Source: Raoultibacter phocaeensis
Lineage (GTDB): Bacteria; Actinomycetota; Coriobacteriia; Coriobacteriales; Eggerthellaceae
Length of the DNA stretch: 64,000 nucleotides
Assembly (NCBI RefSeq): GCF_901411515.1
Contig: NZ_CABDUX010000002.1
Coordinates: 1,736,001 to 1,800,000, forward strand
Direction of reading: 5' to 3'
Shown one piece after another: positions 40,057-59,512 of this stretch (within the stretch, counting starts at the first letter, position 1; the number at the start of each line of letters is the position of its first letter). Made by a program: the position numbers and the translations under genes. The notes under the pieces are model-generated. The model was not told where the DNA came from. It saw nothing but the letters and a program-made list of their open reading frames with translations, and searched no databases.

Positions 40057-40197
40057 GATTGAAATCCTTTCTCTTATGCATATGCGTGTTCGTCTGCTCG
40101 GGGAAAAAGCGTTGCCTGAGCGCACTCGCCGCGCAACCGAGACCTTGCAGCCGGACTTCGGCCGTCCCCTTGTCTCATGGAACTCAGTATTTTTCGA

Positions 40198-40227
40198 TTG
40201 ACCCCGATAATCTACAACTGCTAATGT
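40198..40227 (+). promoter_or_regulatory. Candidate promoter of the membrane-LuxR gene
   Basis: TTGACC (40198-40203) is 18 bases from TAATGT (40222-40227), about 57 bases before the ATG at 40284. The opposite-strand promoter for the transhydroxylase genes should lie in the same 227-base gap (40057-40283), but I could not pick it out. Confidence 0.35.
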
Positions 40228-40283
40228 TGAATTCGGTTTTTTTGGAAATCCCGTATCATACTCAGATGTTGAGAGGCCGTGTA

Positions 40284-44771: not shown

Positions 44772-46088
44772 ATGAAGCCGCAAAAACTCAACGACGAGGA
44801 ACTCGCTTCCGTAGCAGAGCTCGATTCGCCTATCCTCACCGCTTTGGCCGAATGGGCGAACAAGCGTCTCACCTGTTCGCACTGCAAGCGCTGCACGATC
44901 AGGTGCGAGGTGCTGGACCAACCCGGTCTCGATGTAGGCCTTGTCGAAGAAAGCTACCGCGAAATCACCGCCGTGCCCTTCGACGACCAGCCGGCAGCGG
45001 TCATCGAGCTCGTGCAGGAGCGCCCCGAGCTGTTCATTGCGCTTCGGCGCTGCTGCTTCTGCGGCTATTGCACGGCCACCTGCCAAACCCATGTGCTCGC
45101 AGCCGACCGGATGCGCGATTGGCGCGAGCTGTTCATGAGGGCGAACTACATGCCCCCCGACGATTCGCGCCTTGTCATGGTCGATAACGAGTGGCATATC
45201 TTCAGTGCGTACCGTGCCGTTTACGGCATCGGCTATCCCGAGTTCACCTCCTTGCCGCAAGCGGCCGAAGCGGGACCCGGCACCGTCGACACGCTGTTCT
45301 TCCCCGGCTGCTCGCTCGTCAGCTACACGCCTCATCTTGTACGCGCAGCGGGCCAATGGCTCACTGACGCCGGCATTTCCTGGGCGCTTTCCGACGAGTG
45401 CTGCGGAAGCCCCCTTATGAGCGCCGGGCTGTTCGACCGAGCGGCAGCGCTTCGCCAGCGCGTCATCGACCAGATGCACGAGGCGGGCATCACCCGTATG
45501 ATCACGGTGTGCCCCGGCTGCGGCGACGAGTTTTCTGAATACCTCGAAGGCAGCGGCATCGAGATCGTCCCGCTGCCCGAAGTGCTCTACATTGAGGCGC
45601 GGCGGCGCGAAGCTGCAGGTAAACCGAGCGGGTTTTCACCGCTTGGCGAGACCAGCCTCACGTTTTTCGATTCCTGCCACGACCGCGCAGACAACCGCCA
45701 CGGTAAGGCTATCCGCGCGCTCGCGAAACGCTATCTGCCCGATGCGACGCGCGTCGAGCTCGAGCATCACGGACGCGGTACGCTTTGCTGCGGAGCAGGC
45801 GGAGCCGTGGCCTCCTACGACGAGGACATCACGAACCGCCGCGTGTGGCGCGTGATCGAAGAAGCCCGGGCGACCGGCGCCGAAACGCTCGTTACCGCAT
45901 GCCCCACCTGTACCTACACCGTTGCCCAAGCGTGTTTGGGCGTTTCGCCCGAATACGGCATCGGCAACCGCCACTACCTCGAGCTTCTGTTTGGCGAACC
46001 CATCGACTGGCCGCTCATATTCGACCAGCTCGGCTCTATGTGGACCGGCGAATACGGCCCGTGGCTCAACCAGACGTTCTTCGGGTAG
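44772..46088 (+). CDS. Fe-S oxidoreductase with two CCG domains (HdrB/GlpC/LldE-like)
   Basis: 438 residues. Two N-terminal cluster motifs are CSHCKRCTIRC (about 35-45) and CCFCGYCTATC (about 94-104). Two cysteine-rich CCG domains follow: FFPGCS, DECCGSP, CPGCG; then DSCHDR, LCCGAGGA, CPTCTYT. In heterodisulfide reductase and glycerol-3-phosphate or lactate dehydrogenases such subunits pass electrons or hold a non-cubane cluster. It faces the minus-strand molybdoenzyme cluster, and the 52389-53408 product carries a second pair of CCG domains, so the two may serve the same electron chain. Confidence 0.85.
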   Translation: MKPQKLNDEELASVAELDSPILTALAEWANKRLTCSHCKRCTIRCEVLDQPGLDVGLVEESYREITAVPFDDQPAAVIELVQERPELFIALRRCCFCGYCTATCQTHVLAADRMRDWRELFMRANYMPPDDSRLVMVDNEWHIFSAYRAVYGIGYPEFTSLPQAAEAGPGTVDTLFFPGCSLVSYTPHLVRAAGQWLTDAGISWALSDECCGSPLMSAGLFDRAAALRQRVIDQMHEAGITRMITVCPGCGDEFSEYLEGSGIEIVPLPEVLYIEARRREAAGKPSGFSPLGETSLTFFDSCHDRADNRHGKAIRALAKRYLPDATRVELEHHGRGTLCCGAGGAVASYDEDITNRRVWRVIEEARATGAETLVTACPTCTYTVAQACLGVSPEYGIGNRHYLELLFGEPIDWPLIFDQLGSMWTGEYGPWLNQTFFG

Positions 46089-46149: not shown

Positions 46150-46587
46150 TCAGATACAGGGCGCTTTCTTCCTCATCGGAAGCGGGCTGCATTCGTCGAA
46201 GAGTTCGCACTCGTCGCATTCCTCGACGATGGGGGGATGGATGTCATCCCACGGGATCGCCTCGAATCCGAGCGCTTCGTAAAACGCACGGCTCGTTCCC
46301 CGCGATACGAGCCGAAGCTCCCCGAACTCTCCGAGGGCGCCTTCGACAAGCGCACGTCCCACACCGAATCCGCGCCACGTCGAGTACACGACAACGGGAT
46401 TGATGTGGCACACGCCTGCGCTATCGAACACAAGGCGGATGAAGCCGACGATATCGCCGTCATCGCTCACGGCAACGCGCACGGTATCGCCCGGCTCGAT
46501 CGGCCCCATGCCCTCAAGCGACGAATAAGCGGTAAGCGTTGCGCAATCGCCCGGCTCGGCATGTCTGATGGTGAACAGTTCGCTCAT
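46150..46587 (-). CDS. GNAT-family N-acetyltransferase with Cys-rich tail
   Basis: 145 residues. The GNAT core has INPVVVYSTWRGFGVGRALVEGAL (acetyl-CoA binding, about 62-85) and SRAFYEALGFE (motif B). The C terminus ends EECDECELFDEC, four cysteines that could bind metal and are unusual for GNATs. It starts 9 bases after the DUF169 gene stop, so the two are co-transcribed. The acetyl acceptor is unknown. Confidence 0.87.
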   Translation of the reverse strand: MSELFTIRHAEPGDCATLTAYSSLEGMGPIEPGDTVRVAVSDDGDIVGFIRLVFDSAGVCHINPVVVYSTWRGFGVGRALVEGALGEFGELRLVSRGTSRAFYEALGFEAIPWDDIHPPIVEECDECELFDECSPLPMRKKAPCI

Positions 46588-46596
46588 GACGCAATC

Positions 46597-47580
46597 CTAA
46601 AACGGGGGCAGGTATATTTTGTCGCGCGACTGCGGGATGGCCTTCTTGCCGAGCTCGGTAAGCCCTTTGACGACCTGCGGCATGAGCGAGACGGGAATGC
46701 CCATCATCATGCAATCGTCGCCCACATCGGAGCTTGCGCGGCACCCGTAGCATCCGAACGAGATGTTGATCTCGCCCGAGGTCATCGGCAAAAGCGTGGT
46801 CTCGACGCACTGGGCGTTGTATCCGCTTGCATGGAAGTCATGGCGATGGCCCGTGTAGTACGAAGTGGCCATCGAAAGCCACATGATCTGTTCAGGCTGA
46901 GCCACGATGGCGACGACCTCGGCTTCGCACGCCGCATCGGAAAGCGGCGTGACCACCGTCGCGTCTACGGTACGCGGCTCCAGGCACGGGCGCTCAAGCA
47001 CCATCCGCTTGGCAGCCTCCACCGAATCGAGCTTATGGAACAGGATGTACAGCTCGCCCGACGCAAGCTTCTCCGGCATCTCCGTAAGACCCAGGATCGA
47101 CGTTCCGTCAGGGCATGCGTGGCGGTTCGCCGGCATCATGAGCGAGCGCCCCCGCCGAGCTGCCATAAGCGACTGGCAGTACCGCAGCCTCTCTTCGGGA
47201 ATCGGCACATCGGGAACCGGATCGCCCGCCTTGACGAGCGATATCGCCACCGGATGCCACCGAAGCCCCAGCACCTCGGTCAAAACGCGCGACCACTCGG
47301 CGTAGAGCGCCTTGGTCTTGGGATCGAGCGGAGCCGCCTTCTCGCGATCGGCGAACACCGATGCCGCCGCAGCCGACGCCTCGATGCGGATCGCATGTTC
47401 CGGGCACTGCCCCGCGCATGTCTCGCATCCCCAGCAATCCTCGGCTCGAACTGCTTGAGGGCAGTCATCCATCACGAATACATTGACCGGGCAGAACGCC
47501 TCGCAGAGCCCGCAGGACGTGCAGGCCCCCCTATCGATATGCACCGTATAAGCGACTTCTGCCGCTTTGCCGTTTTCCAT
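46597..47580 (-). CDS. Ferredoxin-DUF169 fusion protein
   Basis: 327 residues from MENGKAAEV at 47580 (AAAGGG upstream). Two [4Fe-4S] motifs occupy the N terminus: CTSCGLCEAFCPVN (about 20-33) and CWGCETCAGQCPEHAI (about 50-65). Residues 90-327 are a DUF169 domain: WHPVAISLVKAGDPVPD, then RYCQSLMAARRGRSLMM, FGCYGCRASSDVGDDCMMMGIP. DUF169 proteins hold conserved cysteines and are found mainly in anaerobes; their reaction is unknown to me. It belongs to the minus-strand molybdoenzyme neighbourhood. Confidence 0.85.
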   Translation of the reverse strand: MENGKAAEVAYTVHIDRGACTSCGLCEAFCPVNVFVMDDCPQAVRAEDCWGCETCAGQCPEHAIRIEASAAAASVFADREKAAPLDPKTKALYAEWSRVLTEVLGLRWHPVAISLVKAGDPVPDVPIPEERLRYCQSLMAARRGRSLMMPANRHACPDGTSILGLTEMPEKLASGELYILFHKLDSVEAAKRMVLERPCLEPRTVDATVVTPLSDAACEAEVVAIVAQPEQIMWLSMATSYYTGHRHDFHASGYNAQCVETTLLPMTSGEINISFGCYGCRASSDVGDDCMMMGIPVSLMPQVVKGLTELGKKAIPQSRDKIYLPPF

Positions 47581-47744
47581 TAAAAAGCCCTTTCTATCAC
47601 TCAAAAAGCCAGGAAGTCAGGTGATCGCGCAGGACGGTGCCCACAAAACGAGTGCAGGATCGCAACCAGCCCACAGGGTTGATTCGCGCGACCCAGGGAT
47701 CGTCTGAGCGACCAGACGCCGCCTGCGTGCCCGCCGCCGCAGGT

Positions 47745-49067
47745 TTACCGCAGCTCTTCTTTCCCCCAAGGAGGATACACCCTTCTCCCCGAATCGTCCG
47801 TCAAATGATACGAACAGAACGGGATGGCGCGCCCATCGGGCACCGTCACCATCATAGAGCATTCGCGCAGCCGCTGCACGTCCATCGACGTGGCATCCAT
47901 ATAGTTCATGATGACGATCGAAAGCCCGCTCGATACGTCGTGACCGCGCGCCGCGAGTATGTCCAGAAACACCGAGCCTTGCGGGCTGTCCGGACTGTAT
48001 CCCGCTCGATATTCCTCATCGGTCAGAAGCTTCGTAGCCGGCACGAACCCGCTCGGGTGTTCGGCCTGATCGCTCTTTAGCAGAAAGACGCCGGTGTCGC
48101 ACAGCGGGTTCGAGCAGCCGAGCGGCCAGATGTCGTAGGGATCGAGCAGACCGTCCGACTGCTCGGCGAGCCCGAACGCCACGTCGCCCGCCGACATGGG
48201 CATGGCCCGCGTCGCATCGAAACGTCCCGAGGTAAACGCAGGCTGCAGCGCTAGACCCGCCACCACATCGGCGTTATCCAGGCAGAAACGCAGCAGATCG
48301 CCGAGCTGCTTGTCATTGGATCCCGCGACCACGGCCACCGACAGCACCACCTGGATGCCAACCTCGCGACACCGTTCGATCACCTTCATCTTGATATCGA
48401 GGATATCGCGCCCGCACGTTGCTTCGTACACATCGCCTGTCAGGCCGTCGAACGAAAGGTACACGCCCGTGAGCCCCGCGAATACGAGCTCTTCCAGATA
48501 CCCGTCACGCGCCGCGATCACGAGGCCGTTCGTATTGACCTCGATACCCCAGAAGCCTTTGTCCCTGCCCATGCGGATGATTTCGGGCAAGTCTTTGCGA
48601 CACGTCGGCTCGCCGCCCGTGATCTGCACGGCGCCGTCTGTTCCCACGGCGTTCGCGATCACCTCGTACATGGCGTCGATCTCCGCAAGCGTTGGATCGC
48701 CCTCGCCGGTCTCGGCGCTCATAAAGCATACCGGGCAGTGCAGGTTGCAGTTGCGGGTGACCTCGATCTCAAGCAGGGTACCTCGGCGCTCATGGCGCGA
48801 GCAGGTGCCGCACCCGTAAGGGCACGCGGCCCCGGCCGGTATCGTGTTTTCTGGCTTGGTCTTAGGAAACGCATGGTTCCTCAACCAAAGGTAATGGTCG
48901 GCGTCGGGCCACATGCGCGTGGCGAGCGGCCCGTGCTCTGAGCAGGTGCGCTCCATCCACACCACGCCTTCACCGTCGGCGTACACTTCGGCGGGAAGCT
49001 CTTTCAGGCACGTCGGGCAAAGCGCGATCGTCTTGTGGAGCGGGGTTTTCGCAACAGATGTGCTCAT
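47745..49067 (-). CDS. Radical SAM protein, MJ0619/Tes-like architecture
   Basis: 440 residues from MSTSVAKTP at 49067. An N-terminal cysteine-rich part (ALCPTC, TCSEHG, then ACPYGCGTCSRHE near 81-93) precedes the radical-SAM motif CNLHCPVC (Cys107, 111, 114). GGEPTCR and EVNTNGLVI follow in the SAM barrel. This N-terminal layout is known from archaeal MJ0619-type methylases and tetraether lipid synthases, and from uncharacterised bacterial homologues. It starts 7 bases after the DUF2064 gene, a partner often named rSAM-associated transferase 1. The substrate is unknown. Confidence 0.87.
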   Translation of the reverse strand: MSTSVAKTPLHKTIALCPTCLKELPAEVYADGEGVVWMERTCSEHGPLATRMWPDADHYLWLRNHAFPKTKPENTIPAGAACPYGCGTCSRHERRGTLLEIEVTRNCNLHCPVCFMSAETGEGDPTLAEIDAMYEVIANAVGTDGAVQITGGEPTCRKDLPEIIRMGRDKGFWGIEVNTNGLVIAARDGYLEELVFAGLTGVYLSFDGLTGDVYEATCGRDILDIKMKVIERCREVGIQVVLSVAVVAGSNDKQLGDLLRFCLDNADVVAGLALQPAFTSGRFDATRAMPMSAGDVAFGLAEQSDGLLDPYDIWPLGCSNPLCDTGVFLLKSDQAEHPSGFVPATKLLTDEEYRAGYSPDSPQGSVFLDILAARGHDVSSGLSIVIMNYMDATSMDVQRLRECSMMVTVPDGRAIPFCSYHLTDDSGRRVYPPWGKEELR

Positions 49068-49074
49068 GGGATTC

Positions 49075-49932
49075 CTATTCGTCGATGTACTGACGGGGAT
49101 CGTGATTGTCGTTGGGAGGCGTAGTGATGCGCAAGCCGATGAAGTCGACCCAGTCGAGCACACGCTGCGGCACGTAGATGCCAGGCTGCGCCTTGGCCGC
49201 TTCGGCAATCGCGCGGATGCACGATACCGTATGGGCCAGATCCGTCATCTCGTCGACATCGGACACCGGCGACAAGAACGCCGAGGGGATGTTCTTGTCC
49301 TGCAGCTTCTCTACGTACCCGTCAAGAGCGGGACGGCCGCCCGTGTTGTAGTACACGCCTTGATGGTCGATCGGCGTGTTGTAGCTGAAGCCGACGAGCG
49401 AGGTTCCGCATTCCTGACACGGCGCCTGTACGAAACCGGGAGTACCGAGCGCCTGATAGTAATCGAGCCAGCCGAACGCTTGCGATACATGCGAGCGCGG
49501 CATGGTGGGAATATCGCCGCCGACCGAAACGATGCTCTCGTAACCGAGCGCGAAAATCTGGGCGAACGCATCGTCGAAATGGTCGTCGAACGTGGCACCC
49601 TTGTCGGTGATGTAGTGGATCTCCATGGGCCACGGGCCTATTTCGTCGTAGGTTGCCTTCATGACCTCGACGTTTTCGGCCGGCGTAGTCGATACGAAGA
49701 AGTCGTAGGTGATCTTGGTCGCTTTGGGGTCGCTTTCCACAAGCGCATCGTTTTCCGCCTGAAGCTCAAGCAGCACCTGCATGCACAGCTCCGATACGTC
49801 GAACAGGCTCCGCTTGAAGAACTCGGCAGCCTGTTCGTCGGAGAACGGACCGCTCGCCACAAGACGCGTCTTCACCATCCCGGGAACCGGGGGCTTGCTG
49901 AACAAGAGCAGGGCGTGTTTCTTTTCCGCCAT
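49075..49932 (-). CDS. DUF2064 / rSAM-associated glycosyltransferase-like protein
   Basis: 285 residues. LLLFSKPPVPGMVKTRL (about 8-24) is the nucleotide-binding hallmark of DUF2064/TIGR04282 (CofC-like GT-A fold). SVGGDIPTMPRSHVSQAF matches the metal-binding GxDxP region. Members are called rSAM/selenodomain-associated transferase 1; their acceptor is generally unknown. It ends 7 bases before the radical SAM start, an operon pair. Confidence 0.85.
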   Translation of the reverse strand: MAEKKHALLLFSKPPVPGMVKTRLVASGPFSDEQAAEFFKRSLFDVSELCMQVLLELQAENDALVESDPKATKITYDFFVSTTPAENVEVMKATYDEIGPWPMEIHYITDKGATFDDHFDDAFAQIFALGYESIVSVGGDIPTMPRSHVSQAFGWLDYYQALGTPGFVQAPCQECGTSLVGFSYNTPIDHQGVYYNTGGRPALDGYVEKLQDKNIPSAFLSPVSDVDEMTDLAHTVSCIRAIAEAAKAQPGIYVPQRVLDWVDFIGLRITTPPNDNHDPRQYIDE

Positions 49933-50095
49933 TCGATATCTCCTCGTCTATCGTGTCGTACCGAGCAGCGCTGCGCTCTCGGCCTTTTTCGTTGTTCTGT
50001 TCGGCGCTTTCGCCGATGTGCCTCGTACGGCTTTTACCGAGGCAATCGGCTTTCCGCCGCCGTACCCGGCAGCCGACCGCGCCTTTGGCCTTCGC

Positions 50096-52402
50096 CTACG
50101 TCGCCCGATCATCCGCCTTTTGAATCGTGCACTGAATCGCGTTGTACGCCCAGGTTCCGATCATCGCTTCGCCGTCTGCAACCGAGCAGTCGGTCAGCAG
50201 ATTGATGTTCGACTCGAACATCCCGCCGAACCCGGGAGCTCCCGGCACGCGCTCGGGAAACCACCATCCGTAATCGGCGCTCACGATGTCGTCGCGCATG
50301 GGCGCGGTTTTCAGTATAAAGCTCGCCGCGCCCTTGCCGTTCGAAAGCACGACCGGATCGCCGTCGGAAAGCCCGAGCCGCTCGGCCGTTTGCGGGCTCA
50401 CCTCAGCCAAGGGATGAGGATAGCTCGCACGGAAATCCGGGTTGGAAAGGAACATCGAGGCGTTGTAGGGCTGCTTGCGCGCTCCGGTTATGAGCATGAG
50501 GCACTCGCCCGCCTGGCCGCGTACTCCAACGTCCGAAAGCGCTTTGCCGCTCGCCGCGACCTCGTCCGGAATCGCACCGCCCGGTACAGCTACAGTCTGC
50601 GCCGCACCGCTCGCCGCATCGCCGATCGCCGCGCGCGACGAAGGTGTCGGCAACCGATCGCCACCGTGCTCGCCTAAGATCTCGCAGGCAAGCTCGATTT
50701 TACCTGTGGTCGTCGCGAATCCCACAGGCTCGCCGTCCGCACCTGCCGCCTCGTGCTTTTCGAAAGCGGGCGGGCGCCAGTACAGACCCGTCTGGCAGTA
50801 CTCATCCCAACTCATAGCGGCATCGGCAAGCGTGCGGGCGTAGGCCCCCTCGAGCGTCTCGTCGGGCCAATCCTCACCTTGCCCGAGGCGAAGGCCCAGT
50901 TCGCGGAACACGTCGTAATCGACCTTGCGCTCGTAGTAAGGTGCGACCGCGGCAGGTCCGCCGTAGGCGATGTTCGCCACACCGCCGTGAGCCTGAAACG
51001 TCGGACGCTCGATGGCGCCTGCGGCGGGCAGCACGTAATCGGCGATGCTCGCCGTGGGGGTCAAGTAGTATTCGAGCACCACAAGCAGGTCGAGCGAGGT
51101 GAGCGCCTCGAACACGCGGTTGGTGTCGGCGTAGGTCACAAGCGGGTTCGTAGCTTCAACGATGAGCGCCCGCACCGGATACGGATCGGATTCGAGCATG
51201 GCTTTGAGCACGAGATCGGGATGGGCGGATGTCAGATAGCGAACCGGAAGCCTGCGCCCGAGCCGCTCGGTCAACGCGCGCACTTTCTCGTATCCCTCGT
51301 AGCACTGCAACGGGGTATAGGGCGTATTGAGGCACGACGCCTTCTGCGCGTCGGTCATGCGGGCGGAGAGTTCGAGATCGACCTCGGGCGTGAAATCGCT
51401 CATCTCGGCGAGTACGCAGGCGCCGGGCTTGTCGACGTTGCCTGTGATGGCGCGCAGACAGCAGATGGCGCGATGCGTCGGGGCTACGTCAGGGCCGATC
51501 TGATCGACGCCGCGGCCCGACACGAGCGCCGCCGCGCGTGCACGGCCGAATATCCGCGCTGCGCGCACGATATCGGCAGCCTCGAGCCCGCATACCGCAG
51601 CAACCGCTTCGGGGGTGTAGGCCCGCACGTGTTCGACCAGTTCGTCAAAGCCGTGACACCAGCGCTCGACAAAGGTACGGTCGATGAGGTTCTCTTCGAC
51701 GATGACGTGGATCAGTCCGAGCGCGAGCGTGCAGTCGGTACCGGGTTTCACGGGCAGCCACAGATCGGCGCGGGCGGCAACCTGCGTGCGCCTCGGGTCG
51801 ATCACCACAAGCGGCACCTCGCTTTTCGAAAGGGCGATAAGCGAGCGCCAGAACGCGGAGTTGTCGGATTGCGCCGGATTCGTCCCCCAGATAAACACCG
51901 CCTCGGTGCGCGTGGGGTCGATATCCGCCTCCACGGTCCATCCGAACGTGAGCGCATCCATCCAAATGCGCGGGTTCCAGCATATCTGACCGATGCCCAT
52001 GTTGTTGGGAGATCCGAACAGGCTCATGAACCGATGGAGCGGCCAGAACGACGCATGGGGACCTCCGATGGCGCTGGCAAGCGTCGCAGGACCGTGCTTT
52101 TCTGCAAGAGCACGCAGGCGCGCCGCGATGTCGTCGAGCGCTTCGTCCCAGCTTATGCGCTCCCACTGGTTCGAACCGCGCTCGCCGATGCGGCGCAGCG
52201 GGTAGTTGATACGGTCGGGATCGTCGAGCACCTCAAGGTTCATGCGCCAGCGCCGGCAACCGCGGACGATCTTCTCGTCGTAAGGATAGCGTGACGTATC
52301 GGGCTCAAGGTCGACCACGCGCCCGTCTTCAACCGTTGCGGTAAACGCGCACAAATATCCGCAAAAGTGGCAGTTCGTGGGTTTCAGCTCACGCACGCTC
52401 AT
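50096..52402 (-). CDS. Cytoplasmic molybdopterin (bis-MGD) oxidoreductase
   Basis: 768 residues from MSVRELKP at 52402 (GGGGAG upstream). The N-terminal [4Fe-4S] motif is CHFCGYLC with a distal Cys in RGCRRW. The bis-MGD signatures are present (WERISWDEALDDIA, FIWGTNPAQSDN, VVIDPRRTQVAARADLWLPVKPGTD, GATNPL-like, VLPAAGAIERPT). The probable Mo ligand is the Cys of GQICWNP. No Tat signal. The C-terminal GWWFPER...NINLLTD is shared with the 55088-58009 enzyme, so they are paralogues. It overlaps the upstream CCG gene by 14 bases, so that protein is its likely electron partner. Substrate unknown. Confidence 0.9.
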   Translation of the reverse strand: MSVRELKPTNCHFCGYLCAFTATVEDGRVVDLEPDTSRYPYDEKIVRGCRRWRMNLEVLDDPDRINYPLRRIGERGSNQWERISWDEALDDIAARLRALAEKHGPATLASAIGGPHASFWPLHRFMSLFGSPNNMGIGQICWNPRIWMDALTFGWTVEADIDPTRTEAVFIWGTNPAQSDNSAFWRSLIALSKSEVPLVVIDPRRTQVAARADLWLPVKPGTDCTLALGLIHVIVEENLIDRTFVERWCHGFDELVEHVRAYTPEAVAAVCGLEAADIVRAARIFGRARAAALVSGRGVDQIGPDVAPTHRAICCLRAITGNVDKPGACVLAEMSDFTPEVDLELSARMTDAQKASCLNTPYTPLQCYEGYEKVRALTERLGRRLPVRYLTSAHPDLVLKAMLESDPYPVRALIVEATNPLVTYADTNRVFEALTSLDLLVVLEYYLTPTASIADYVLPAAGAIERPTFQAHGGVANIAYGGPAAVAPYYERKVDYDVFRELGLRLGQGEDWPDETLEGAYARTLADAAMSWDEYCQTGLYWRPPAFEKHEAAGADGEPVGFATTTGKIELACEILGEHGGDRLPTPSSRAAIGDAASGAAQTVAVPGGAIPDEVAASGKALSDVGVRGQAGECLMLITGARKQPYNASMFLSNPDFRASYPHPLAEVSPQTAERLGLSDGDPVVLSNGKGAASFILKTAPMRDDIVSADYGWWFPERVPGAPGFGGMFESNINLLTDCSVADGEAMIGTWAYNAIQCTIQKADDRAT

Positions 52403-53408
52403 CGGCGCTCCCCTCGTCGGTCGGCGCACTGTTCGCGCCCGGAGATGTCTGCGCGCAATCGGCATCCGGCACAGCAGACGCGCCGCAGCACGCACCGCCC
52501 GAAAGTCCGTCGTAGTCCCGCCTGCCCGACCGCGCCTCGAACAAGAACCTCATCTGAAGGTACGGCGGTAACCCGTCCCAGTCGATGCGCTCGTCGCACA
52601 GAAGTTCGAGATAGTGCATCACCGGCAGGGTATCCTGAAAGCTCGAAAGCTGCGACGAGCAGCTCATGCACACGGTTACGAGGCCGTCGGCTCCCGCCGA
52701 CTTGCCCTCTTCGCCCCGCCGCTTCGCCTGACGCGTTGCCGCATCCGGCTTGCCCGCCGCCTTTGCGAGCGAGCCGCAGCACAAAGACGATGCGCGGTTG
52801 TGCTCCATCTCGACAAGCAAGTCGCCTGCGATGAGGCTGCGCACGCCGCGGGCAAATTCGCCGATCGTGCGGTCGGGGCAGGAATCGTGTACGGCGAGCG
52901 TCGGCGCATCGCCCGCGTACGCGATGCCGTTGCGCTCGAAGAACGTACGCACGCGCTCGGGCTCAAGCGCGATTCCGTGTGCCGCGAGCACCTCGGGCAG
53001 CACGATCACCTCGACATCGGACACAGCCGGATCGAAGCTGAGCATACGGCGCACTTCAGCCGTACAGTTCGGGCATGCCGTAACGATGCGGCGCACCCCC
53101 GCCTCGGCAACCGAGCGCGAAAATTCCGAGCGGAAAGCCGGGCAGAGCACATCGGCATCGGGTTCGAACGAAAGCAGCTTGCCGCAGCACAGAAGCGAGA
53201 TGCCGTCCACTTCGCCCAGATCGGTCAGCATTTCGTACACCTTGCTCATAAGCGGTTGCGCGAAGTTGATCACCGAACAACCCGGGAAGAAAACGGAGCG
53301 CGCGCCATGGCCATGCTTACGGTCTGCCCGCCCGAGCAGTTCGTAGGCATACCCATCGAGCGCGATTGCGCTATTCGTCAACGCATCTTCATACACAACC
53401 CGACCCAC
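52389..53408 (-). CDS. CCG-domain Fe-S protein (HdrB/DsrK-like)
   Basis: 339 residues. Two CCG domains: FFPGCSV, SLLCCGKL, CPNCTAE (about 40-125), then HDSCPDR, SLCCGSLA, CMSCSSQL (about 170-260). No ferredoxin motif precedes them. An unusual Ser/Ala/Asp-rich tail with a CC pair ends the protein. Its stop overlaps the molybdoenzyme start, so the two are translationally coupled. In related systems such subunits carry electrons between thiols, ferredoxin and a catalytic enzyme. Confidence 0.85.
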   Translation of the reverse strand: MGRVVYEDALTNSAIALDGYAYELLGRADRKHGHGARSVFFPGCSVINFAQPLMSKVYEMLTDLGEVDGISLLCCGKLLSFEPDADVLCPAFRSEFSRSVAEAGVRRIVTACPNCTAEVRRMLSFDPAVSDVEVIVLPEVLAAHGIALEPERVRTFFERNGIAYAGDAPTLAVHDSCPDRTIGEFARGVRSLIAGDLLVEMEHNRASSLCCGSLAKAAGKPDAATRQAKRRGEEGKSAGADGLVTVCMSCSSQLSSFQDTLPVMHYLELLCDERIDWDGLPPYLQMRFLFEARSGRRDYDGLSGGACCGASAVPDADCAQTSPGANSAPTDEGSADERA

Positions 53409-53480
53409 GCCTGACTCCTATTCGCCAGAAGGCACCGAAACCATCCGGCGCCTTCGTCGTTGCTCTATGCCGTTCTCAAT

Positions 53481-53511
53481 CGGCCGTCGCACCTAGAAGC
53501 TGCGACGGCCG
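53481..53511. terminator. Hairpin between the NrfD and CCG genes
   Basis: CGGCCGTCGCA (53481-53491) pairs perfectly with TGCGACGGCCG (53501-53511), loop 9. No T-run follows on the minus strand. It probably separates the Mo/FeS/NrfD operon from the CCG/Mo operon or reduces read-through. Confidence 0.5.
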
Positions 53512-53532
53512 TAAGGATCTTACGAGAACATA

Positions 53533-54507
53533 TTAGTACAGATTCTCCTTGCCCCGCCACTTCGATACGAACGTTTCGTCGCCCTTGGCGATGCGGTTGT
53601 AGTAGCGGTTCTCGCCGGGGATCTCGGCGCGCTCGTCGGAGTACACGCACAGATAGCGAAGAAGCAAGCCGCCGAGCAGCACGAGCACCGGCGCCACGAT
53701 CGTTGATGCCGCAGAATGGCCGCCGCCGATGTAGAGGATGAGCGGGATGACCAAGCCGAAGCCAATCATGCCGATCCAGAACAAGGGAGCGGTCTTGCCC
53801 TTGACCCAGCGCGTGGCGACGGCTTTTGCCGTCTGGTTGCCAGCACCCAAGAACGAGAGCACCATGATGAGCAGCACCACGATCTCGGCGCACACGAGCA
53901 CGATGTCGATAACGTGCACGATCTCGTGGATGATCTCGGTGACGACAACGGCTTCAAGGCTGAACTCGACCGGCCAGCCACCGAGGCTGAGCGCGATGGC
54001 TGCGCACGCCGTGGAGATGGCCGATATAGTGAACAGCACCGGAAGCGCTGGGGTCGCCCAAAACGCATGCGCCTTCAGCGTGGAGAGCATGACGCCCGTG
54101 TACACCATGATGCCGAAGCCCGCGAGGCCCGCAAGAGCGAGGAACACGCCGCGCCCGCCAGCCAAAACGCCGGCAAGCCCGCTGATCCATTCCCAAGGCA
54201 GATACGACGCCCACCAAAGCGCGCCGAACACCATGGCGATTACGAGCAGCGTTGCACCCCACTTGATAATGGCGGTCGCCGTGGTCCATACGCGCCAGAA
54301 CACAAGCGGCTGCCCCAGCTCGAACACCAGAAAGAAGCATCCGACGGCAAGGGCTGCGAGCGCCAGGAACATCGGCCACGCGAACAGGACGCCCGCACCC
54401 GGGGTGATGAAGAAGTCGAAGATGGCGGAAAGGAACATGATGCCGCCGCCAAGGCCACCCAAGAACAGATAGATGACGATGGGCATCTCCCAATAATGAT
54501 GTTTCAT
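53533..54507 (-). CDS. NrfD/PsrC-type membrane subunit
   Basis: 324 residues with about nine hydrophobic segments. The start HYWEMPIVIYLFLGGLGGGIMFLSAI is the classical NrfD signature. GQPLVFWRVW, FGIMVYTGVMLST and TEIIHEIVHVIDI mark the quinone-site helices. It anchors the ferredoxin and molybdoenzyme to the membrane and exchanges electrons with menaquinone. It overlaps the ferredoxin stop by one base (TAATG). With a cytoplasmic catalytic subunit, the complex would act on an intracellular substrate. Confidence 0.93.
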   Translation of the reverse strand: MKHHYWEMPIVIYLFLGGLGGGIMFLSAIFDFFITPGAGVLFAWPMFLALAALAVGCFFLVFELGQPLVFWRVWTTATAIIKWGATLLVIAMVFGALWWASYLPWEWISGLAGVLAGGRGVFLALAGLAGFGIMVYTGVMLSTLKAHAFWATPALPVLFTISAISTACAAIALSLGGWPVEFSLEAVVVTEIIHEIVHVIDIVLVCAEIVVLLIMVLSFLGAGNQTAKAVATRWVKGKTAPLFWIGMIGFGLVIPLILYIGGGHSAASTIVAPVLVLLGGLLLRYLCVYSDERAEIPGENRYYNRIAKGDETFVSKWRGKENLY

Positions 54508-55085
54508 TACGCCTTACCTCCCAACTCGGGAATATAGTATATCTGCGGGTCGGTTCCCAGTTCGGTGAACAGACGCTCGGTCTTCACCGAACCGATGAGC
54601 TTGGAAACCTCGCTCTCGGGATCGTCGAGATCGCCGAAGATACGGGCCTTCTGATGGCAGGTGTCCACGCAGTAGGGTTTCGCGCTCGGATCCATCTGGC
54701 GGCGATCGCGGCAGAACGTGCACTTGCGCACGAATCGGTGCAGACGCGGCTCAAGATGCGAGGCGTCGCGCATGCCGTAGGGGCACGCGTTCACGCACAC
54801 CTTACACGCCATGCATTTCTTCGAATCGATCCAGACGGTGCCGTCCTCGTCTTGCTGGCTCGCACCCGTGGGGCAGCAGGGAACGCACTCGGGGTTCGCG
54901 CAGTGCATGCACAGAAGCGGCGTCCAGTCGCGGTGGACGTTGGGCCAGGTTCCCTGGGTTCCCTCGGTGACAACCGGGTTGTATACGATATCCAACGGAA
55001 GGTCGTTCCATGTACGACAGGCAACCGTGCACGACTGGCAGCCGATGCAGCGACGCTTGTCGATGACCATCACGTACCGTGTCAT
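54507..55085 (-). CDS. DmsB/NrfC-like four-cluster ferredoxin subunit
   Basis: 192 residues with all four [4Fe-4S] cysteine groups: CIGCQSCTVAC (about 14-24), CMHCANPECVPCCP, CMACKVCVNACPYG, and CTFCRDR with CVDTC. It passes electrons between NrfD and the molybdoenzyme. It starts 2 bases after the molybdoenzyme stop. Confidence 0.94.
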   Translation of the reverse strand: MTRYVMVIDKRRCIGCQSCTVACRTWNDLPLDIVYNPVVTEGTQGTWPNVHRDWTPLLCMHCANPECVPCCPTGASQQDEDGTVWIDSKKCMACKVCVNACPYGMRDASHLEPRLHRFVRKCTFCRDRRQMDPSAKPYCVDTCHQKARIFGDLDDPESEVSKLIGSVKTERLFTELGTDPQIYYIPELGGKA

Positions 55086-55087
55086 AT

Positions 55088-58009
55088 CTATTCTCCTTCC
55101 TCGGCCGCTTGGGCACCTTCGGCTGCGGCCTGATCGCTCGGCTCGCTTTCCTCGGCGGGCTGCTCGGCAACGAGCTCGTTATAGCTCATGTCGAAGCATC
55201 TGCCGCTCGCCTCGTCGACGAGGCACGCACGTTCGGCATCGTAGAGCCAACCGTAGTAAGCATCGTGGAACGCGCCGGTTTCCGGATCGATGAGCCACCC
55301 TGAGTTGGGATCGTAGATGTAGACGAACTCGCCGAGCACGGCATGGCCTCGCGCAGGATCCCATGCAAGCTGCTCGGGCACCTCGTAGGGCGCCGCTTCG
55401 GCACCCGGGTAGCAGCGGATACCCGCAACGAAGGGGATCTCTTCGCGGTCCATCGTGTACATCTTGCCGGTCTCATCGTCGACCAGACACTCGTTTGCGG
55501 CATCGTAGCGCCATCCGGTGTAAGCGTCGTGGTAGCCCTTCGTCTTCGGGTTGATGAGCCAGCCCGACTCGTCGAGGCGGAAGTGCGTATCTTTCGTGTA
55601 CAGGTTTCCGCTCTGCCAGACCCATTCGTAACCCTCGGGAACGTCCTCGGGCGGTGCGGGCACCTCAAACGGAATGGGCTCGCGGGCAAGGTGCTGATCG
55701 CTCGGCATAACCGTGACGCCCGGCTCCTTCGACGAACCTGGAATGGAGAACTGGGTGTCGGCGGCTTTGTACTCTTTGTCGAACTCACCGCACTTGTACA
55801 CCTTGCACATGAGGCCGCGGTTCGCCCACGAGCCGCCCATGGGATCGCAATCCCAATCGTCGACCGAGGTGAGCACGTTGACGTTGGACTCGAGGCAGCC
55901 GAACGGGTTGTCCAGGTTGGCGGAGCCGTCACGCTCGGGGAACCACCAGCCGCGCGGCGCGAACACCACGTTGGGAGCCACTTCGGGCTCAACGTTCGCG
56001 CGCATCTTGATGCGTCCGCGACGGGTTTCGATCCAGCACCAGTCGCCGTAGGCGATGTTGAGCTTTTCGGCGAGCTCGGGATTGAGCGAGAAGTACGGAT
56101 CGGGATAGAGGAAGCGGATGCCCTCCATCTGGAAGTGCTCGGAATGGTGGTACGGCATGAAGCCGCCGCCGGTGGTGAGCACGACCGGGTACTCTTCGGC
56201 GATCTCAGGCGTATCGATCTCGTTCTCGATGCAACCGATGTAGGTGGGCATACCCGAGTAACCGAGCTGGCGCAGGATGGAAGAGTTGCACTCGACCTTG
56301 CCCGAAGGCGTCCAGAAGCCGCCGTTCGTGATGAACTTGTTCTGATGTAGCGGCGGATAGTACATGCGGTAGAAGTCAACGAAGTCGTTGTACTTCTCGA
56401 CGCCGGGCAACGCGAGCGGCTCGAGGATGTGCATGTACGCTTCTTCCTCGGTCTCCCACGGCCACATGGCCGGATCCTGGCCGCATGCAAGGCCGAGCTT
56501 GCGCCAGAACGTCATGTCGGTATGGCGGTCGTACTTAGGCTGGATAGCGCGCCTGCCGCCCATGAACGAATCGGTAGCGCCGTAGTGGGTGACGATGGTG
56601 GGACGCTCGAGGGCGCCTGCTGCTGGGAACACGTAATCCGAGAACAGCGCTGCGGGCGTCATCCAGTAATCGACGGTGACCAAGAACTCGCACTGCTTCA
56701 GGGCTTCGAGCGTCATCTTGGCATCGCCGTAGGAGTTGACCGGGTTCGTGGCGTTCACGATGAGTGCACGCACCTTGTACGGATCGCCCGTGATGATAGC
56801 CTTGAACACGCTCGGGCCGTGGGCTTCGCAGAACCATTCGGTCGGAAGCGACTTGCCCCACGTGCGCTTGGCATTATCCGAAATGAGCTGATAGCCGGGC
56901 CACGAGGTGAGCTTGAACTTGTTGGAGCCGATCTGCTTGGACTTCTGCTCCTCGGGTAAGCACTCGTTCGCCTCCATCTCTTCGTCGGTCAAGAAGCCGA
57001 GCGAGGGACCGGGCATGCCGTCGCCGCCGGGAACGTCGAGGTTGCCGCAGACCGCACGAATGAGCGCGATGGCGTGGCTGCCCGTGGTGGAAGCGCGGCC
57101 GATCTGATCCCACGTGCAGCCCCATTGGATGCAGCCGGGACGGTTCATAGCATACATGCGAGCGACTTCGCGGATCTGCTCGGGCTTGAGCCACGTGATG
57201 GGCGCCGCCCACTCGGGCGTGTACTCCTTCACGTGCTCACGCAGCTCGTCGAACCCGTCGCACCAGTCGTTCACGAACTGGTAGTCGTACAGACCTTCGT
57301 AGATGATGGTGTGAAGCATGGCGAGCGCGAGCGCCGCATCGGTGCCGGGACGCAAGGGAACCCAAAGGTCCGCCTTGGAAGCCGTCTCGGAATAGCGCGG
57401 ATCGACGACGATGATCTTGAGGCCGGCTTTCTGAAGATCGGTATAGCCGTCCATGCCGCCGAGCGTTGAAGCACCCGGGTTCATGCCCCAGAGGATGAGG
57501 CACTTGGCTCCGGCCAGATCGGTCTCGAACGGCGACCAGCCCGCAACGCAGGTCTCAGCCATGAACGTCGGGATCCAGCACAGAAGCGCGTTATGGAAGC
57601 CGTTCGGCGTGCCGAACTGGTTGAGGAAACGACGGCGCGCCCAGTCATCGGTACGCGTGGTACCGCCGGCTGAAGCCACTGCCTCCGCCCCGCTCTCGGC
57701 TTTGATCTGGTTGAGCTTCTCGGCAACTTCCTGGATCGCCTGATCGTATGGAATCTGCTCCCACTTGCCCTCGCCCTTCTCGCCCACGCGCTTGAGCGCA
57801 TGGTTGATGCGGGCGGGGTGGTTGACATGCAACAGCGCGCTCGTACCGCGGCAGCACAGACCGCCGTGGTTCGAGTAATCAGGATCGCCTTCGATCTTGA
57901 TCACATCGCCATCCTTGACGTAGGCAAGGACGCCGCAGTTCGCATGGCAGAAATAGCAGAGCGACTTTACCATCTCGACGCCATCGGCATGGATATCGAT
58001 TTCTGTCAT
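55088..58009 (-). CDS. Cytoplasmic molybdopterin oxidoreductase with duplicated C-terminal module
   Basis: 973 residues, about 200 more than its paralogue at 50096. The N-terminal cluster uses CYFCHANC and a Cys in GGLCCRG. Bis-MGD signatures are intact (LILWGMNPGAS, VVDPRYSETASKADLWVPLRPGTD, NATNPVNSYGD, VFPAAGALERPT); the Mo ligand is probably the Cys in ALLCWIP. The catalytic part ends near GWWFPER...NVNVLT. Then come two 40-residue repeats at 816-855 and 904-943 (GWLI-P-T then HDAY-GW-YDA, CLVD, G, M), unusual for this family, and an acidic tail. No Tat signal. It forms an operon with the ferredoxin and NrfD genes. Substrate unknown. Confidence 0.92.
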   Translation of the reverse strand: MTEIDIHADGVEMVKSLCYFCHANCGVLAYVKDGDVIKIEGDPDYSNHGGLCCRGTSALLHVNHPARINHALKRVGEKGEGKWEQIPYDQAIQEVAEKLNQIKAESGAEAVASAGGTTRTDDWARRRFLNQFGTPNGFHNALLCWIPTFMAETCVAGWSPFETDLAGAKCLILWGMNPGASTLGGMDGYTDLQKAGLKIIVVDPRYSETASKADLWVPLRPGTDAALALAMLHTIIYEGLYDYQFVNDWCDGFDELREHVKEYTPEWAAPITWLKPEQIREVARMYAMNRPGCIQWGCTWDQIGRASTTGSHAIALIRAVCGNLDVPGGDGMPGPSLGFLTDEEMEANECLPEEQKSKQIGSNKFKLTSWPGYQLISDNAKRTWGKSLPTEWFCEAHGPSVFKAIITGDPYKVRALIVNATNPVNSYGDAKMTLEALKQCEFLVTVDYWMTPAALFSDYVFPAAGALERPTIVTHYGATDSFMGGRRAIQPKYDRHTDMTFWRKLGLACGQDPAMWPWETEEEAYMHILEPLALPGVEKYNDFVDFYRMYYPPLHQNKFITNGGFWTPSGKVECNSSILRQLGYSGMPTYIGCIENEIDTPEIAEEYPVVLTTGGGFMPYHHSEHFQMEGIRFLYPDPYFSLNPELAEKLNIAYGDWCWIETRRGRIKMRANVEPEVAPNVVFAPRGWWFPERDGSANLDNPFGCLESNVNVLTSVDDWDCDPMGGSWANRGLMCKVYKCGEFDKEYKAADTQFSIPGSSKEPGVTVMPSDQHLAREPIPFEVPAPPEDVPEGYEWVWQSGNLYTKDTHFRLDESGWLINPKTKGYHDAYTGWRYDAANECLVDDETGKMYTMDREEIPFVAGIRCYPGAEAAPYEVPEQLAWDPARGHAVLGEFVYIYDPNSGWLIDPETGAFHDAYYGWLYDAERACLVDEASGRCFDMSYNELVAEQPAEESEPSDQAAAEGAQAAEEGE

Positions 58010-58382: not shown

Positions 58383-58436
58383 CCAATACTTCTATTGGAC
58401 GGCATCCATTATATAGTAGTACATGACAATTGGGAA
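58383..58436 (-). promoter_or_regulatory. Candidate promoter and operator of the molybdoenzyme operon
   Basis: On the minus strand, TATAAT (58408-58413) is 17 bases from TTCCCA (58431-58436). A perfect dyad CCAATA-CTTC-TATTGG (58383-58398) sits just downstream of the expected start site, as expected for a repressor site. Confidence 0.4.
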
Positions 58437-58440
58437 ACAT

Positions 58441-58470
58441 TTGCACGAATCATCCTGCGACTGGCATAAA
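58441..58470 (+). promoter_or_regulatory. Candidate promoter of the PhnP-like gene
   Basis: TTGCAC (58441-58446) and CATAAA (58465-58470) are 18 bases apart, about 70 bases before the GTG start. A second -10-like TATACT lies at 58501-58506. Confidence 0.3.
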
Positions 58471-58540
58471 CCGTCCGCCTACAGGCCGCACGACAACCTT
58501 TATACTAGTGCATACCGACTGTAAGGAAAGAGAGCGAACC

Positions 58541-59512
58541 GTGAGCGAACAGCGAAACGAAACAGACGCGCCGAGCGGCACTGTCCCCCGAAAGCGCGCT
58601 GCGGCGCGCACCGAGCCCGAAGGTGCGCCCCCCATGTCAGGCGATGCGCCCCGCGAGCTAGACGATGCGCCCCCCGTGCCAAACGATGCGCCCCGCGAGC
58701 CAGAAACCGCACCCGGCAAACGCTCGATGCACACCTTCACCTTCCTCGGTACGGGCGCAGGATGCGGGGTGCCCGCGTTCTTCTGCGAATGTCCTGCATG
58801 CGTCGAAGCGCGCAACGATCCGCGCGCCCGGCGCGGCGACTGCGGCGTCATGATCGAGGGGGCCGAATGCCTCGTAATCGATACGCCGCCCGATATTCGC
58901 CATCAGCTCATCAGGGAGGGCGTACGGACAATCGACAGGCTTTTGTACACGCACGGTCATTTCGACCACCTCGGCGGCCTCGGCGAACTCGAATACATGG
59001 TGCAGCTTGTCACGAAGGCCGAGCTTCCCACCTTCGCGAGCGCCGCCACGTTCGAGGGCGTCGAGCGCGAATTCGGTTACATGACATATTGCCTCGGCAT
59101 GCACGAGCTTGCACCCTTCGAGAGCTTCGAGTTCGACGGTGCCCGCTACACGGCGCTTCCCGTAACGCACGCCCCCGGCACGTTCGGCTATCTCATCGAA
59201 ACGCCGCGCACAAGCCTGTTCTACGCTTCGGATACGGGCAGGCTTCCCGATGAGACCGCCGAGCGCGTGCGCGGCGTCGACGTACTTGCCCTCGATGCGA
59301 CGTTTTGGAAGCGCAACTGGAGCCCCGATGCGCACCACAGCGTTCAAGAGGCGATCGAGGAGGGATTAGAGCTCGGCGCGGGCACGATCTACCTCACCCA
59401 TCTTGCCATGCACTACGACGAGCCGATCACGCTTTGCGAGCTCGAAGCGTACGTCGGACAGTACGACGGACGCGTAAAGGTCGCCCTCGACGGCATGAAA
59501 ATCGCCCTCTGA
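58541..59512 (+). CDS. PhnP-like metallo-beta-lactamase phosphodiesterase
   Basis: 323 residues from the GTG at 58541; an internal ATG at 58727 would remove the N-terminal 62 residues. Those residues are disordered and contain 7-residue repeats (DAPRELD, DAPPVPN, DAPREPE) from a 21-bp tandem repeat. The enzyme core begins MHTFTFLGTGAGCGVPAFFCECPAC, the PhnP-like start with its zinc-binding Cys. The metal motif is HGHFDHLGGL, followed by THAPGTFGYL, YASDTG and LTHLAMHYDE. PhnP hydrolyses cyclic ribosyl phosphates; homologues without phn genes nearby, as here, may act on other cyclic phosphodiesters. Confidence 0.88.
   Translation: MSEQRNETDAPSGTVPRKRAAARTEPEGAPPMSGDAPRELDDAPPVPNDAPREPETAPGKRSMHTFTFLGTGAGCGVPAFFCECPACVEARNDPRARRGDCGVMIEGAECLVIDTPPDIRHQLIREGVRTIDRLLYTHGHFDHLGGLGELEYMVQLVTKAELPTFASAATFEGVEREFGYMTYCLGMHELAPFESFEFDGARYTALPVTHAPGTFGYLIETPRTSLFYASDTGRLPDETAERVRGVDVLALDATFWKRNWSPDAHHSVQEAIEEGLELGAGTIYLTHLAMHYDEPITLCELEAYVGQYDGRVKVALDGMKIAL
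58626..58712. repeat. 21-bp tandem repeat inside the PhnP-like gene
   Basis: Units of 21 bp begin GATGCGCCCC at 58640, 58661 and 58682, with a divergent partial unit before them. They encode DAP-containing heptapeptides. Being a multiple of three, unit number can change without breaking the frame. Confidence 0.65.

What the first reader, a model, noticed from the sequence alone, without database searches (positions are those of the whole stretch)
46150..53408. Radical SAM, DUF2064, CCG, ferredoxin-DUF169 and GNAT genes packed around an orphan molybdoenzyme
Tight spacing (14-base overlap, 7-base and 9-base gaps) links poorly known families to a bis-MGD enzyme that has no NrfD or DmsB partner of its own. 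The CCG protein overlaps its start and is the likely electron donor. The radical SAM and DUF2064 pair belongs to a class seen with unknown modified products. Together they could make or use a modified small molecule or cofactor for the reductase.
Basis: partly seen in the sequence, partly recalled or inferred. Interest (0 to 1): 0.55.

Follow-up and report, generated by a model that had tools for sequence, protein, structure and literature searches.

The report
Conserved radical-SAM / molybdoenzyme gene cassette
A gut bacterium and its relatives carry a long, conserved block of genes in which a radical enzyme related to an archaeal lipid-coupling enzyme almost always accompanies an acetylene-hydratase-like metal enzyme; the block looks like a real but undescribed metabolic system of unknown product.

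Summary
The genes lie where stated (14-base overlap, 7- and 9-base gaps), but are the downstream half of a nine-gene block (46150-58009, minus strand) that starts with a second acetylene-hydratase-like bis-MGD enzyme plus its FeS and NrfD subunits. Order is kept across Coriobacteriia; a core recurs in Bacillota. In 138 Eggerthellaceae genomes the radical SAM gene occurs in 62; all 62 have DUF2064 and 60 the same molybdoenzyme (two misses sit at assembly breaks). The radical SAM protein has the full fold and metal ligands of archaeal tetraether synthase (GDGT-MAS) but lacks its insertions, and is a distinct clade beside TrsS. TrsS itself mostly sits beside xanthine-oxidase-type molybdoenzymes. 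DUF2064 models as a CofC/FbiD-like guanylyltransferase, not an arsenosugar glycosyltransferase. Best reading: a dedicated system in which the radical SAM enzyme and the nucleotidyltransferase make or modify a small molecule (cofactor or substrate) used by the tungsten/molybdenum enzyme next door. That they work together is well supported; whether the product is a cofactor or a substrate is not settled. Product, substrate and metal are unknown.

The parts
55088..58009 (-). Mop1: acetylene-hydratase-like bis-MGD enzyme, 973 aa, with a C-terminal extension matching OCRE repeats
   Evidence: Pfam PF00384/PF01568/PF04879/PF17780; best PDB 2E7Z acetylene hydratase E 6e-110
54507..55085 (-). FeS: DmsB/NrfC-type ferredoxin subunit
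   Evidence: TIGR03149 158 bits, Fer4_11
53533..54507 (-). NrfD-type membrane subunit
   Evidence: PF03916 E 1e-24
52389..53408 (-). CCG1: HdrB-like cysteine-rich protein (GTG start), overlaps Mop2 start by 14 bases
   Evidence: PF02754 two stretches; sequence
50096..52402 (-). Mop2: acetylene-hydratase-like bis-MGD enzyme, 768 aa; C11/C14/C18/C49 [4Fe-4S] and C141 metal ligand
   Evidence: PF00384; best PDB 2E7Z E 1e-87; conservation in 43 sequences
49075..49932 (-). DUF2064: CofC/FbiD-fold nucleotidyltransferase-like protein
   Evidence: PF09837; fold 3CGX Z 23.9, CofC-type 2I5E/7P97/6BWH Z 18.5-20; KTRL and GGD(I/L)P motifs
47745..49067 (-). rSAM: Tes/TrsS-type radical SAM enzyme, 440 aa, rubredoxin site plus three Fe-S cluster motifs
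   Evidence: NF045646 333.6 bits; ligands; fold 7TOM Z 41.1; tree
46597..47580 (-). Ferredoxin-DUF169 protein
   Evidence: PF02596 E 1e-54, Fer4
46150..46587 (-). GNAT acetyltransferase with C-terminal Cys motif (C-x2-C, then a third Cys)
   Evidence: PF13508; motif in 31 of 32 rows
44772..46088 (+). CCG2: ferredoxin-CCG (HdrD-like) protein, convergent with GNAT
   Evidence: PF02754/PF12838; near rSAM in 10 of 33 Coriobacteriia loci, fused to GNAT in L097
44102..44533 (+). PadR-family regulator near the block
   Evidence: TIGR02719 59.8 bits; within 12 kb of rSAM in 17 of 33 Coriobacteriia loci
58430..59512 (+). MBL-fold metallohydrolase (PhnP/GPMC-like), divergent from Mop1
   Evidence: within 12 kb of rSAM in 16 of 33 Coriobacteriia and 1 of 9 Bacillota loci
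58408..58436 (-). promoter-like TTCCCA-17-TATAAT upstream of Mop1; weak, not above chance
   Evidence: 1 found, 3.7 expected in shuffles

Best explanation
The block is a dedicated radical-SAM/bis-MGD system. SHOWN: rSAM and Mop2 are inherited together, with DUF2064 always present in the Eggerthellaceae genomes that have rSAM; rSAM is predicted to be a complete Tes-fold enzyme with all metal ligands; DUF2064 is predicted to have the CofC/FbiD fold and carries nucleotidyltransferase motifs; Mop1 and Mop2 are acetylene-hydratase-like, with a Cys metal ligand. INFERRED: rSAM does C-H radical chemistry on a small molecule; DUF2064 guanylylates (or otherwise nucleotidylates) it; Fd-DUF169 and GNAT assist; the product is a cofactor or cofactor modification that Mop2 (and Mop1 where present) needs. 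Mop2 draws electrons from, or is kept reduced by, the CCG protein in the cytoplasm; Mop1 connects to menaquinone through FeS-NrfD. Of cofactor and substrate I commit, narrowly, to the cofactor reading (about 0.45 against 0.35 for the substrate reading).
For: Co-inheritance: rSAM in 62 of 138 Eggerthellaceae genomes; DUF2064 in 62 of 62 of these and 5 of 76 others; Mop2 in 60 of 62 and 1 of 76 others, the three exceptions being an assembly with Mop2 in pieces (G067, L072), a hit at a contig start (G121) and an rSAM cut at a contig end (G049/L028). Linkage: Mop2 within 12 kb of rSAM in 32 of 33 Coriobacteriia and 9 of 9 Bacillota loci; the exception L099 has Mop2 on another contig. Cassette rSAMs are one clade, 100/99. 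Electron partners vary while rSAM-Mop2 stays: no second Mop at E 1e-80 in G127, G033, G034, G051. Cofactor link: the same rSAM family sits beside two unrelated molybdoenzyme folds that share the pterin cofactor: of 37 family hits in 398 Bacillota genomes, 24 lie beside xanthine-oxidase-type and 5 beside bis-MGD enzymes; the xanthine-oxidase-type operon read in detail (L145) also carries a MocA-like NTP transferase and XdhC; Moco-synthesis genes follow the block in 4 of 9 Bacillota loci. Dedicated, not global: G054 has 112 Mop candidates and no Mop2 or rSAM hit, G073 has 7 and a full block.
Against: No product, substrate or metal is known. 8 of 37 Bacillota family hits and both archaeal TrsS loci read (L093, L094) show no molybdoenzyme nearby. 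TrsS operons also contain a CoA ligase and a methyltransferase, which fit substrate metabolism as well. The nearest functional relatives of DUF2064 by fold act on phospho-acids in F420 synthesis, not on molybdopterin (pathway recalled). DUF2064 was found beside only 3 of 9 Bacillota blocks, two of them divergent (28-29%). The earlier pterin-methylase role of MJ0619 could not be corroborated (PMC9433317, passages), so the family gives no pterin precedent. DUF2064 has a second copy elsewhere in most of these genomes without a shared neighbourhood.
Confidence: 0.45

Rival explanations
1. Catabolic or respiratory pathway: rSAM, GNAT and DUF2064 act on an imported substrate, which Mop2 and Mop1 then hydrate, dehydroxylate or reduce as electron acceptor.
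For: Transporters near some blocks: DASS in the window, YnjBCD-type genes beside or near it in L023, L097, L081, L082, L087 and the own genome, with an APH-type kinase in L023, L097 and the own genome, MFS in L136 (by sequence only). Old-yellow-enzyme gene in L133 and L136. Acetylene-hydratase-like enzymes of Eggerthella and Gordonibacter are catechol dehydroxylases (PMC7028382, passages). The TrsS operon has CoA ligase and methyltransferase.
Against: Transporters differ between lineages, while rSAM-Mop2 stays. No degradation enzyme is common to all loci. The kinase is in only 29 of 62 rSAM genomes.
Confidence: 0.35
2. Lipid system: rSAM couples or alters hydrocarbon chains like archaeal GDGT-MAS, and the molybdoenzymes act on the lipid or its precursor.
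For: Fold match to 7TOM Z 41.1, rmsd 2.4, 405 aligned; all GDGT-MAS metal ligands kept, including Met387 at the place of Met439 (ligands from PMC9433317, passages).
Against: The two insertions seen in the archaeal relatives are absent; no lipid gene recurs among the genes compared; molybdoenzyme linkage is unexplained.
Confidence: 0.1
3. The genes are only neighbours in molybdoenzyme-rich genomes, without joint function.
For: Own genome has 110 Mop candidates, so any gene may lie near one.
Against: Orthologous pairs, order and co-occurrence kept across genera and two phyla; full block in a genome with only 7 Mop candidates (G073).
Confidence: 0.02

Closest known systems
TrsS (NCBIfam NF045646) and its DVU_1551-1559-type operon
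   Same: Same radical SAM family and length; sits beside a molybdoenzyme, a CCG-containing oxidoreductase and an NTP transferase.
   Different: Cassette rSAM scores 333.6 against a cut-off of 490 and forms its own clade; bis-MGD enzymes replace the xanthine-oxidase-type one; DUF2064 replaces the MocA-like protein; no CoA ligase, methyltransferase or XdhC found at cassette loci. TrsS and cassette rSAM coexist in G138, G139, G141.
GDGT-MAS / Tes (MJ0619; 7TOL, 7TOM)
   Same: Whole fold and all metal ligands.
   Different: 32% identical over the structural alignment, lacks the archaeal insertions, no lipid genes seen beside it.
Acetylene hydratase (2E7Z)
   Same: Best solved structure for Mop1 and Mop2; Fe-S cysteines and Cys metal ligand kept.
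   Different: The Asp next to the second Fe-S cysteine (Asp13, recalled as catalytic) is His in 32 of 32 Mop1 and Gly in 43 of 43 Mop2; the residue after the Cys ligand is Trp.
CofC / FbiD guanylyltransferases of F420 synthesis
   Same: Fold (2I5E Z 20.0, 7P97 Z 19.9, 6BWH Z 18.5) and KTRL, GGD(I/L)P motifs (motif meaning recalled).
   Different: 15-18% identity, extra CxxC (PCQECG) and C-terminal part; no F420 gene recognised in the block.
Catechol dehydroxylases of Eggerthella/Gordonibacter
   Same: Reported as closest to acetylene hydratase, same bacterial family, some with FeS and membrane subunits (PMC7028382, PMC11574389, passages).
   Different: 'Radical SAM' has 0 occurrences in PMC7028382; no direct sequence comparison made here.

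Membership tests
TrsS (NF045646) | Score above curated cut-off of 490 bits | tested here: not met
   333.6 bits; six cassette rSAMs score 325-358, true TrsS in the same search 521-636
TrsS (NF045646) | Falls inside the TrsS clade | tested here: not met
   Cassette clade 100/99 and TrsS clade 100/98 are separate
Tes / GDGT-MAS (NF045702) | Score above curated cut-off of 450 bits | tested here: not met
   288.7 bits
Tes / GDGT-MAS (NF045702) | Rubredoxin site, N- and C-auxiliary clusters, labile Met ligand | tested here: met
   C17 C20 C42 H45; C82 C86 C89 H92; C107 C111 C114; C323 M387 C403 C418 invariant or at least 90% in 18 sequences
Tes / GDGT-MAS (NF045702) | Couples isoprenoid lipid chains | not testable with these tools
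   needs biochemistry
Acetylene hydratase | Closest relative among solved structures | tested here: met
   2E7Z ranks first for Mop1 and Mop2
Acetylene hydratase | Catalytic Asp beside the second Fe-S cysteine (role recalled) | tested here: not met
   His in 32 of 32 Mop1, Gly in 43 of 43 Mop2 (aligned)
TIGR04282 arsenosugar-type glycosyltransferase | Score above curated cut-off of 134 bits | tested here: not met
   59.7 bits
CofC/FbiD-type guanylyltransferase | Fold | tested here: met
   2I5E Z 20.0 rmsd 2.2 over 201; 7P97 Z 19.9 rmsd 2.5 over 198; 6BWH Z 18.5 rmsd 2.7 over 198; next group Z 15.2 or less
CofC/FbiD-type guanylyltransferase | Activity on a phospho-acid with GTP | not testable with these tools
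   needs enzyme assay
Catechol dehydroxylase | Falls in the dehydroxylase clade | not tested
   no dehydroxylase sequence was fetched

The most novel reading that the evidence does not exclude
Some tungsten/molybdenum enzymes of anaerobes carry a covalently modified pterin (or a second nucleotide-linked cofactor) made by a GDGT-MAS-type radical SAM enzyme and a CofC-like guanylyltransferase. TrsS (xanthine-oxidase type) and the cassette (bis-MGD type) would be two branches of one molybdoenzyme-cofactor modification chemistry, which would also explain what many bacterial GDGT-MAS homologues do.
Probability: 0.2. Interest if true: 0.9.

Novelty: new variant of a known kind. Interest (0 to 1): 0.6.

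Why it matters
The 2022 GDGT-MAS paper states that homologues exist in bacteria not known to make such lipids and leaves their role open (PMC9433317, passages). Here 29 of 37 Bacillota relatives found lie beside a molybdoenzyme, and the cassette clade is tied to one particular bis-MGD enzyme in two phyla. That makes the open question testable with two or three genes. The block is common in Eggerthellaceae (62 of 138 species genomes), a family whose molybdoenzymes are known to transform catechols from diet and host (PMC7028382, abstract).

Tried and rejected
Arsenosugar synthesis (suggested by the TIGR04282 name): rejected on score. Global Moco modification for all Mop enzymes: rejected, since the block does not follow Mop number. 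Pterin precedent from MJ0619: dropped after reading PMC9433317 passages. Second DUF2064 copy as a clue: neighbourhoods differ in the seven loci read (htpG, NCS2 permease, MoeA-like, others; names by eye from sequence), no conclusion. Chance neighbourhood: rejected. MobA and MocA structures did not appear among the 50 rows of the DUF2064 fold list; that excludes nothing. Literature: PMC searches for TrsS+radical SAM+selenoprotein, DUF2064+radical SAM, a tetraether/TrsS/DUF169 mix, acetylene hydratase+radical SAM+Eggerthella, DVU1551-1559, radical SAM+molybdopterin+gene cluster+Gordonibacter, DUF169, and a GDGT-MAS+molybdenum mix gave no listed paper whose title or abstract start describes this block; most subscription papers, and the 2025 TrsS paper (Haft and Tolstoy, mSystems), are not held, so it may be described there. 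Of papers I saw search listings, and passages of PMC13188914, PMC7028382, PMC9433317, PMC11574389 and PMC4001038 (one table line on DUF169, not used). The promoter/terminator scan found nothing above chance.

Count caveats: the 33 Coriobacteriia loci include two pairs that carry identical rSAMs (L013/L079, L015/L088) and the close pair L082/L087; L009, L010, L014 and L028 (short contigs) were left out of that count. In the tree I left out L009, L028, L072, L160, L168, L169, trimmed N-termini, cut rows at 520 residues and labelled L099 'cassette' by hand although it has no Mop2 at the locus. In one search, KTRL was found in 38 of 41, the G-G/A-D-x-P motif in 40 of 41 and the D-x-D..DL motif in 37 of 41 DUF2064 rows. 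Fisher p-values ignore shared descent. The genome lists were typed. The Mop-load medians printed came from a hand-picked subset and are not used.
Full report
WHAT IS THERE. The block continues upstream: Mop1 (55088-58009), FeS (54507-55085) and NrfD (53533-54507) are nearly contiguous with each other (2-base gap, then a 1-base overlap) and on the same strand.

FAMILIES. rSAM's best NCBIfam match is TrsS (333.6 bits, cut-off 490), then tetraether synthase Tes (288.7, cut-off 450); Pfam adds the zinc ribbon of the same group. Mop1 and Mop2 both find acetylene hydratase 2E7Z first among solved structures (E 6e-110 and 1e-87). DUF2064 reaches only 59.7 bits against TIGR04282 (cut-off 134). CCG1 and CCG2 hold CCG domains as in HdrB/HdrD (likeness recalled).

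CONSERVATION. tblastn of window proteins against 22 named contigs and further genome stretches shows the order Mop1-FeS-NrfD-CCG1-Mop2-DUF2064-rSAM-DUF169-GNAT across Eggerthellaceae. Of 33 Coriobacteriia loci: Mop2 near rSAM in 32, DUF2064 in 33, DUF169 in 29, GNAT in 28, CCG1 in 28, Mop1, FeS and NrfD in 27 each. Of 9 Bacillota loci: Mop2 in 9, NrfD in 8, Mop1 and FeS in 7, DUF2064 in 3, GNAT in 2, DUF169 in 1. In L135 the DUF169 protein carries its ferredoxin at the other end, and in L097 GNAT and CCG2 are one 582-residue frame; both suggest joint function.

CO-OCCURRENCE. In 138 Eggerthellaceae genomes rSAM occurs in 62, DUF2064 in 67, including all 62, and Mop2 in 61, 60 of them with rSAM. 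G067, G121 and G049 are the three rSAM/Mop2 mismatches and each lies at an assembly break (L072 and L028; the G121:C243 hit starts at base 126). In ten chosen genomes every one has Mop2, and four (G127, G033, G034, G051) have no second Mop at E 1e-80, so Mop1 is dispensable there, as far as these partly incomplete genomes tell. p-values from the counts are tiny but ignore shared descent.

THE RADICAL SAM FAMILY. A tree of 87 rows puts the 44 cassette proteins in one clade (100/99), next to two Eggerthellaceae proteins that also lie near a bis-MGD enzyme (L095, L096), with TrsS as a separate clade. In 398 Bacillota genomes 32 had 37 family hits: 5 cassette type, all with Mop2; 24 beside a xanthine-oxidase-type enzyme; 8 without a detected molybdoenzyme, one of them on a contig of only 4.8 kb. 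The 24 sit in the operon type that NCBIfam names after DVU_1551, DVU_1553 and DVU_1556 (scored on one locus, L145; the others by similarity to it). In G138, G139 and G141 TrsS lies beside a bis-MGD enzyme and FeS protein instead.

STRUCTURE. The rSAM model (mean pLDDT 83.7) matches GDGT-MAS 7TOM at Z 41.1, rmsd 2.4 over 405 residues, with MoaA next at Z 20.3, rmsd 3.3 over 267. All ligands described for GDGT-MAS (PMC9433317, passages) are kept; the labile Met439 aligns with Met387, invariant in 18 of 18. The cassette proteins lack two insertions of the archaeal relatives. The DUF2064 model (mean pLDDT 84.8) matches 3CGX (Z 23.9, rmsd 2.2 over 224) and then CofC/FbiD-type guanylyltransferases (Z 18.5-20.0), ahead of TarI, IspD and GlmU (15.2 and less).

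ACTIVE SITE OF THE MOLYBDOENZYMES. The Fe-S cysteines and the Cys ligand (C141 in Mop2, C144 in Mop1) are invariant in 43 and 32 sequences; the residue after the ligand is always Trp; the acetylene hydratase Asp beside the second Fe-S cysteine is always Gly (Mop2) or His (Mop1). That this Asp is catalytic in acetylene hydratase is recalled. So Mop1 and Mop2 are acetylene-hydratase-like but probably not acetylene hydratases. Mo versus W cannot be told.

FURTHER LINKED GENES. Moco-synthesis genes follow the Bacillota block in 4 of 9 loci (names by eye from sequence, not scored). A YnjBCD-type ABC transporter is near the block in L023 (Bacillota), L097, L081, L082 and L087, and with an APH-type kinase (thiamine-kinase-like, weak, 32.7 bits for the L133 copy) about 10 kb beyond Mop1 in the own genome. 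The kinase occurs in 29 of 62 rSAM genomes and 8 of 76 others. Old-yellow-enzyme and trigger-factor genes flank two Bacillota blocks (L133, L136).

INTERPRETATION. rSAM-Mop2 is the near-invariant pair; electron-transfer partners, transporters and helpers vary. A radical SAM family that accompanies two molybdoenzyme folds sharing the pterin, together with nucleotidyltransferases in both settings, favours a cofactor role. Against it stand the loci without molybdoenzymes, the CoA ligase and methyltransferase of TrsS operons, and the phospho-acid specificity of CofC relatives. I put joint function at about 0.95, cofactor role 0.45, substrate pathway 0.35, lipid role 0.1.

Noticed in passing
window 55088-58009 (C-terminal ~230 residues of Mop1): Two stretches match the OCRE domain (PF17780, E 6e-13), a repeat I recall mainly from eukaryotic proteins; unusual on a bacterial molybdoenzyme. 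Peptococcaceae Mop1 (about 747 aa) is too short to have it.
   Followed up: no
window 37104-39716 (-): A further large frame (870 aa) that reads like a molybdopterin enzyme lies beside a LuxR-type membrane regulator (40059-41801); one of many in a genome with 110 Mop candidates.
   Followed up: no
L170 (G000:C2:1794001-1812000): YnjBCD-type transporter, APH-type kinase and an amidohydrolase (deaminase-like, by eye) about 10 kb beyond the block in the own genome; a similar amidohydrolase lies near L098's block.
   Followed up: partly
G000:C1:661988-662848 (L171): Second DUF2064 copy (44% identical); most cassette genomes have such a second copy, with no constant neighbours in the loci read.
   Followed up: partly
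L090, L091, L092: TrsS frames of 716-733 aa, about 270 residues longer than the 441-position family model, beside a PhsA-like bis-MGD enzyme.
   Followed up: no
L142 (G503): Three TrsS-like matches in a row with a CoA ligase and no molybdoenzyme detected on the 12-kb contig.
   Followed up: no
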